Origin: Sphingobacteriales bacterium TSM_CSS
GTDB lineage: Bacteria; Bacteroidota; Bacteroidia; Chitinophagales; UBA2359
Assembly: GCA_002212985.1 (NCBI GenBank)
Contig: NBMY01000110.1
Span: forward strand, 1 to 64,000
Length of the DNA stretch: 64,000 nucleotides
Direction of reading: 5' to 3'
Positions 33,193 to 33,569 of this stretch are shown piece after piece. Within the stretch, counting starts at the first letter, position 1; each line of letters opens with the position of its first letter. Under the pieces are notes generated by a model. The model saw only the letters and a list, made by a program, of their open reading frames with translations, was not told the DNA's origin and did not search any database. Position numbers and translations under genes: made by a program.

Positions 33193-33200
33193 CAACTTTT
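33193..33200. repeat. Left target-site duplication of the MITE, CAACTTTT
   Basis: Identical to 33397-33404 on the other side of the element; the perfect copy suggests a fairly recent insertion. Confidence 0.85.
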
Positions 33201-33396
33201 GTAACTATTTAGGTGCTCTTAATTGATTGATAATCAACGCTTTGTAAAATTTTTTGTTGTCGAAATTATTAAAAACCAAGCACATTTTCGTTTTTCTGTT
33301 GCGAATCTTTCAACAAAAATACTGTTTTGTTAAACAGAAAGCATCGAAATGTTCATTTAAATGCAAAATTATCAAAAACGGCACCTAAATAGTTAC
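33201..33396. mobile_element. 196-bp MITE with 16-bp perfect terminal inverted repeats and 8-bp target duplication
   Basis: GTAACTATTTAGGTGC (33201-33216) is repeated as its exact reverse complement at 33381-33396. Both ends are flanked by the direct repeat CAACTTTT (33193-33200 and 33397-33404). The interior is AT-rich and has no open reading frame, so the element is non-autonomous. GTAA ends with 8-bp duplications are features of the IS66 family, so that transposase group is the likely mover; this is inference. No partner IS copy is present in the window. Confidence 0.85.
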
Positions 33397-33569
33397 CAAC
33401 TTTTACTGTTGTTTGGCAATTTCAGGCAGGTTAAATGCTGCCGTTCATGAGATAGTGAATGCGTAGTAGCACCTTTGTTGGCGATGTACTTAGCTACCCC
33501 TTTCATTTTGCCGTAAAAACCGCAAGGGCTGGCATAGCATACAATTACCTTGCGTTTAAACGCTTGAGG
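33393..33569 (-). pseudogene. Coding-like stretch cut by the MITE
   Basis: A 58-codon open stretch on the minus strand reads KVIVCYASPCGFYGKMKGV and continues with plausible protein composition to a stop made by the MITE end. Removing the MITE and one target copy leaves the frame open for about 19 more codons. It has no start except an internal ATG at 33506. It may be a remnant of a small gene or a dispersed repeat, or chance. The other sequence between 33405 and 33646 shows nothing else. Confidence 0.25.
33397..33404. repeat. Right target-site duplication of the MITE, CAACTTTT
   Basis: Second copy of the 8-bp target sequence, directly after the right inverted repeat. Confidence 0.85.

What the first reader, a model, noticed from the sequence alone, without database searches (positions are those of the whole stretch)
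33193..33404. A fresh MITE with GTAA ends and 8-bp target duplication
Perfect 16-bp inverted repeats and a perfect 8-bp duplication (CAACTTTT) define a 196-bp element with no gene. GTAA ends with 8-bp duplications point to an IS66-type transposase (established trait of that family). No such transposase is in the window, so its mover should be elsewhere in the genome.
Basis: partly seen in the sequence, partly recalled or inferred. Interest (0 to 1): 0.6.

Follow-up and report, generated by a model that had tools for sequence, protein, structure and literature searches.

The report
Young MITE mobilised by IS66-type transposase
This is a 196-base parasitic DNA element with no gene of its own, recently copied to at least 17 places in this bacterium, almost certainly by the enzyme of an IS66-type insertion sequence in the same genome; it is a clear but fairly ordinary example of a known kind.

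Summary
Window 33201-33396 is a 196-bp element with perfect 16-bp inverted ends (GTAACTATTTAGGTGC) and a perfect 8-bp duplication, CAACTTTT. It is the only such structure in the window, and none appeared in 50 shuffles. The genome holds 17 full copies (97-100% identical). Fifteen have perfect, mutually different 8-bp duplications; the other two are a 7-bp match and a copy cut by a contig start. A sister species has two more copies, but lacks the element at the two sites compared, including the window's own. It is a young MITE family.

The genome carries pieces of a single-ORF, ISBst12-type IS66 element whose ends are GTAACTATTTAGGTAC. One end abuts a transposase N-terminus. The other encodes its C-terminus, with the stop codon inside the repeat. 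One copy lies between two contigs (C160 and C39) that show the same 8-bp duplication and are adjacent in the sister species. A complete relative elsewhere (466 aa, PF03050) also has an 8-bp duplication. The central transposase part is missing from the fragmented assembly. An ISL3 rival, suggested by a 34-bp match, was rejected: its own end lies inside an old MITE copy. Ordinary, but well resolved.

The parts
33201..33396 (+). MITE (family A), 196 bp, no ORF, 28% G+C
33201..33216 (+). left terminal inverted repeat GTAACTATTTAGGTGC
33381..33396 (-). right terminal inverted repeat, perfect complement of the left
33193..33200 (.). target-site duplication, left copy CAACTTTT
33397..33404 (.). target-site duplication, right copy CAACTTTT
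33471..33525 (-). degraded relic of a second MITE family (family B) with similar GYAACTATTTAGGTRC ends; at least 40 copies in the sister species. Not part of the element itself

Best explanation
A young, non-autonomous miniature transposable element (MITE). The transposase of an IS66-family element of the single-ORF ISBst12 type, with ends GTAACTATTTAGGTAC, binds and cuts the shared 14-16 bp terminal repeats and inserts the 196-bp unit into AT-rich intergenic DNA, duplicating 8 bp. Shown: the copies, the TSDs, empty sites, the IS66 element with matching ends, and its own 8-bp TSD. Inferred: that this transposase, rather than another with the same end specificity, moved the MITE; that an intact copy exists; and the chemistry, since the sequence does not tell copy-paste from cut-paste.
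For: Structure. Copies: 17 full copies in the genome at 97-100% identity; 15 perfect 8-bp TSDs, one 7-bp match, one cut by a contig start; two more copies in sister species G001 with perfect TSDs. Empty sites: with element and one TSD removed, L003 aligns to G001 C68 across the junction (227 bp in the filled query against 23 bp, difference 204 = 196 + 8), and the window site aligns to G001 C163 through the junction. Mover: C68, C160 and C72 carry GTAACTATTTAGGTAC followed by a transposase N-terminus (PF20042). C159 and the shared right end on C39/C108/C145 encode the C-terminus, with the stop codon inside the TIR, 65% identical over 48 aa to the complete IS66 transposase in L093, which is PF03050 at 4.4e-31 and flanked by ATTAAAAA on both sides. 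C160 and C39 show the same TSD CATTATTT on either side of the IS, and their joined flanks match one continuous stretch of G001. Eight of 19 MITE copies share 20 of 20 outer bases with the left end of the C68/C160 IS. Published ISBst12-type ISDge4 has ends GTGACTACTCAGCA/GTAACTGCTCAGCA and an 8-bp repeat (PMC12898284).
Against: No PF03050 match anywhere in the 87%-complete, 173-contig assembly, so no intact transposase is in hand. The MITE interior is unrelated to the IS beyond 14-20 bp, so it is not a simple internal deletion of it. The majority MITE type differs from the IS end at position 15 (G for A). Activity was not tested.
Confidence: 0.88

Rival explanations
1. The mover is an ISL3-family element, which also makes 8-bp duplications: 34 bp of the MITE left end match (94%) a sequence beside an ISL3 transposase remnant on contig C35.
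For: C35:2832 reads GCAACTATTTAGGTGCTCTTAATTTATTAATAATCA, next to a PF01610 C-terminal fragment (4.7e-16).
Against: The ISL3 fragment has an ISL3-type end of its own, GGTTCTTCCG, 23 bp from its stop codon and 38 bp inside the MITE-like sequence; the ISL3 element of L128 also ends in GGTTCT/GGCTCT shortly past its stop codon. The divergent MITE on C72 continues ATAATCAGTG past that point, so ISL3 apparently inserted into an old MITE copy. This ISL3 type was found in 1 of 199 genomes of the order, and no ISL3 in sister species G001, which has the MITE.
Confidence: 0.03
2. The mover is a different transposase with the same end specificity (another IS66 lineage or an unrelated family) that is missing from the assembly or has since been lost.
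For: The assembly is incomplete (87%); family-B MITEs in G001 have related but not identical ends (GYAACTATTTAGGTRC / GTACTTATTTAGGTY), so more than one IS of this end type may have existed in the genus.
Against: An IS66 element with the right ends and the right TSD length is present and recently inserted in the same genome; no second one is needed.
Confidence: 0.08
3. A repeat kept for a host function (terminator, small RNA or regulatory hairpin) rather than a transposable element.
For: All 17 copies lie between ORFs and the RNA folds unusually well (z = -4.6).
Against: Exact boundaries, a different 8-bp TSD at each site and clean empty sites show transposition; folding is dominated by the TIRs; no terminator-like site and no Rfam match; absent from G002.
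Confidence: 0.01

Closest known systems
Prokaryotic MITEs (reviewed in PMC10969869)
   Same: Under 500 bp, TIRs, TSDs in young copies, AT-rich, intergenic, stable hairpin, no gene
   Different: Nothing essential. The review's held text does not name IS66.
IS66 family, ISBst12 group (for example ISDge4, PMC12898284)
   Same: End motif GTAACTxxTxAG, 8-bp duplication, single-ORF transposase in the partner IS
   Different: The MITE encodes nothing and shares only the outer 14-20 bp with the IS
MITEPsy1 / ISPsy2 (Pseudomonas syringae, PMC3189936)
   Same: Short gene-less element sharing terminal repeats with a resident IS
   Different: 4-bp duplication and a putative IS5-type partner; unrelated sequence; transposition shown by experiment there, not here

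Membership tests
MITE | under about 500 bp, no transposase gene | tested here: met
   196 bp; no ORF of 80 aa or more overlaps it
MITE | terminal inverted repeats | tested here: met
   16/16 bp
MITE | multicopy with target-site duplications | tested here: met
   17 copies, 15 perfect 8-bp TSDs, plus 2 in a sister species
MITE | empty site in a relative | tested here: met
   Window site and L003 site in G001
MITE | autonomous partner with matching ends | tested here: met
   IS66 ends GTAACTATTTAGGTAC on C160/C39, C68, C72; intact ORF not assembled
IS66 family (the partner IS) | PF03050 DDE transposase | tested here: inconclusive
   N-terminus (PF20042) and C-terminus present and homologous to a PF03050 protein; the central part is missing from the assembly
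IS66 family (the partner IS) | GTAA ends and 8-bp TSD | tested here: met
   CATTATTT on both sides of the C160/C39 copy, empty site in G001
IS66 family, ISBst12 group (the partner IS) | single transposase ORF, no tnpA/tnpB | tested here: inconclusive
   The transposase starts about 196 bp from the left end and stops in the right TIR; relative L093 has a single 466-aa ORF; the middle of the G000 IS was not seen
ISL3 family (as mover) | MITE ends equal the ISL3 ends | tested here: not met
   The ISL3 end is GGTTCTTCCG, inside the MITE-like sequence
MITE moved by IS66 | mobilisation in trans by that transposase | not testable with these tools
   Needs a transposition assay

The most novel reading that the evidence does not exclude
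A so far unnamed MITE/IS66 (ISBst12-type) pair. Sister species of this genus have each amplified a different MITE family (A in this genome, B in G001) with nearly the same ends, so one end specificity has been exploited in turn by unrelated gene-less interiors.
Probability: 0.55. Interest if true: 0.35.

Novelty: new member of a known kind. Interest (0 to 1): 0.25.

Why it matters
It gives a clean natural pair of a gene-less element and its likely transposase for IS66, a family whose transposition is described as insufficiently characterized (PMC12898284). No paper on IS66-driven MITEs came up in the open literature searched here. Identical copies, precise boundaries and empty sites make it a practical substrate for testing what the IS66 transposase needs at its ends.

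Tried and rejected
ISL3 as mover was considered seriously after the 34-bp match on C35, and rejected on anatomy. A search for an intact IS66 transposase by PF03050 in the genome found none. The named genome collection gave only one close complete relative. The MITE is absent from plasmid records and its left end from viral contigs. No Rfam match. Papers combining IS66, MITEs and '8 bp': none.

Full report
Observation. The window reads CAACTTTT (33193-33200), GTAACTATTTAGGTGC (33201-33216), its exact reverse complement at 33381-33396, then CAACTTTT again (33397-33404). A scan of the whole window for perfect inverted pairs of at least 12 bp with perfect 8-bp flanking repeats found only this one, and none in 50 shuffles. 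No ORF of 80 aa or more overlaps it. G+C is 28% against 45% for the window.

Copies. The genome (G000, 4.49 Mb in 173 contigs, 87% complete) holds 17 full copies, plus divergent or truncated ones on C147, C72 and C35. Together with two copies in a sister species (G001), the 19 copies form only five sequence types at 97.4-100% identity. Two linked sites (15 and 129) split them 11 to 8, which suggests two source lineages. The 8-bp flanks are perfect duplications in 15 of the 17 and in both G001 copies. L010 has a 7-bp match, and L009 is cut by a contig start, with its three visible bases agreeing. The 17 perfect TSDs are all different and 24% G+C. All 17 copies in G000 lie between ORFs rather than inside long ones. 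Species G002 (99% complete) has none.

Empty sites. At the L003 insertion, G001 has 23 bp where G000 has 227, a difference of 204 = 196 + 8, and the flanks align through the junction. With the element and one TSD removed, the window's own site aligns through the junction to G001 C163. These are insertions of exactly one element plus one duplication, absent from the sister species.

The mover. A search for the 16-bp end found further places with GTAACTATTTAGGTAC. On C68, C160 and C72 it is followed within about 200 bp by the N-terminus of a transposase (PF20042). Other ends (C39, C108, C145, C159) read GTAACTATTTAGGTACAGAGAATCC; inward from there, C159 encodes ...CFRTLKGVQAYARINSFVPTVRKHGLNAFYELVNIFNRNIPTYRILCT-stop, with the stop codon inside the repeat, 65% identical to the C-terminus of a complete IS66 transposase in a Bacteroidota MAG (L093). 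That relative is a 466-aa single ORF (PF03050, 4.4e-31), with left end GTAACTACTTAGGTAC and ATTAAAAA on both sides. Contigs C160, C68, C108 and C39 break inside the IS, as expected of a repeat collapsed in assembly, and the middle of the transposase is not held. C160 ends with CATTATTT before the IS and C39 begins with CATTATTT after it; the joined flanks match one continuous stretch of G001 C74. So the IS66 element itself inserted recently here, with an 8-bp duplication. The published ISBst12-group element ISDge4 has ends GTGACTACTCAGCA/GTAACTGCTCAGCA and an 8-bp repeat (PMC12898284), matching this end type.

Relation of MITE to IS. They share the outer 14 bp at both ends, and 20 of 20 bp at one end in the eight copies that carry A at position 15. 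The interiors are unrelated, so the MITE is probably not a simple deletion derivative of this IS.

Rival. On C35, 34 bp of the MITE left end adjoin an ISL3 transposase remnant. The ISL3 end proper (GGTTCTTCCG) lies 38 bp inside, 23 bp from the stop codon; the ISL3 element of L128 likewise ends in GGTTCT/GGCTCT shortly past its stop codon. The C72 MITE variant continues past that point. The simplest reading is ISL3 inserted into an old MITE.

A second family. A different MITE-like family (B, about 170-185 bp, ends GYAACTATTTAGGTRC / GTACTTATTTAGGTY) has at least 40 copies in G001 and only a few plus fragments in G000. Several of the copies inspected by script or by eye have perfect 8-bp duplications (L106, L110, L118, L120, L122, L126), others one mismatch. 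A relic of it lies at window 33471-33525, beside the element in question.

Verdict. It is a new member of a known kind. Shown: a young MITE family, precise transposition with 8-bp duplication, and an IS66-type element with matching ends in the same genome. Inferred: mobilisation in trans by that transposase, and the existence of an intact copy.

Noticed in passing
window 33471-33525; L051:3795-3990; many G001 loci (L099-L126): Second MITE-like family (B) with similar ends; at least 40 copies in sister species G001 at 84-92% identity to the query, mostly fragments in G000. Several copies have perfect 8-bp duplications.
   Followed up: partly
L049:1966-4035 (contig C72): A remnant of the IS66 left end and transposase N-terminus, a 380-aa ORF of unknown function, and a divergent MITE-A copy, together bordered by two GTAA-type ends but without matching 8-bp flanks.
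   Followed up: partly
L050:2832-3072 (contig C35): A truncated ISL3-family element apparently inserted into an old MITE-A copy; this ISL3 type was found in 1 of 199 genomes of the order.
   Followed up: yes
L053:470-543 (contig C145): A solo right end of the IS66 element, about 66 bp; the 8 bp after it (TAAATATT) also occur a few bases upstream of its inner breakpoint, possibly a one-ended insertion or chance in AT-rich DNA.
   Followed up: no
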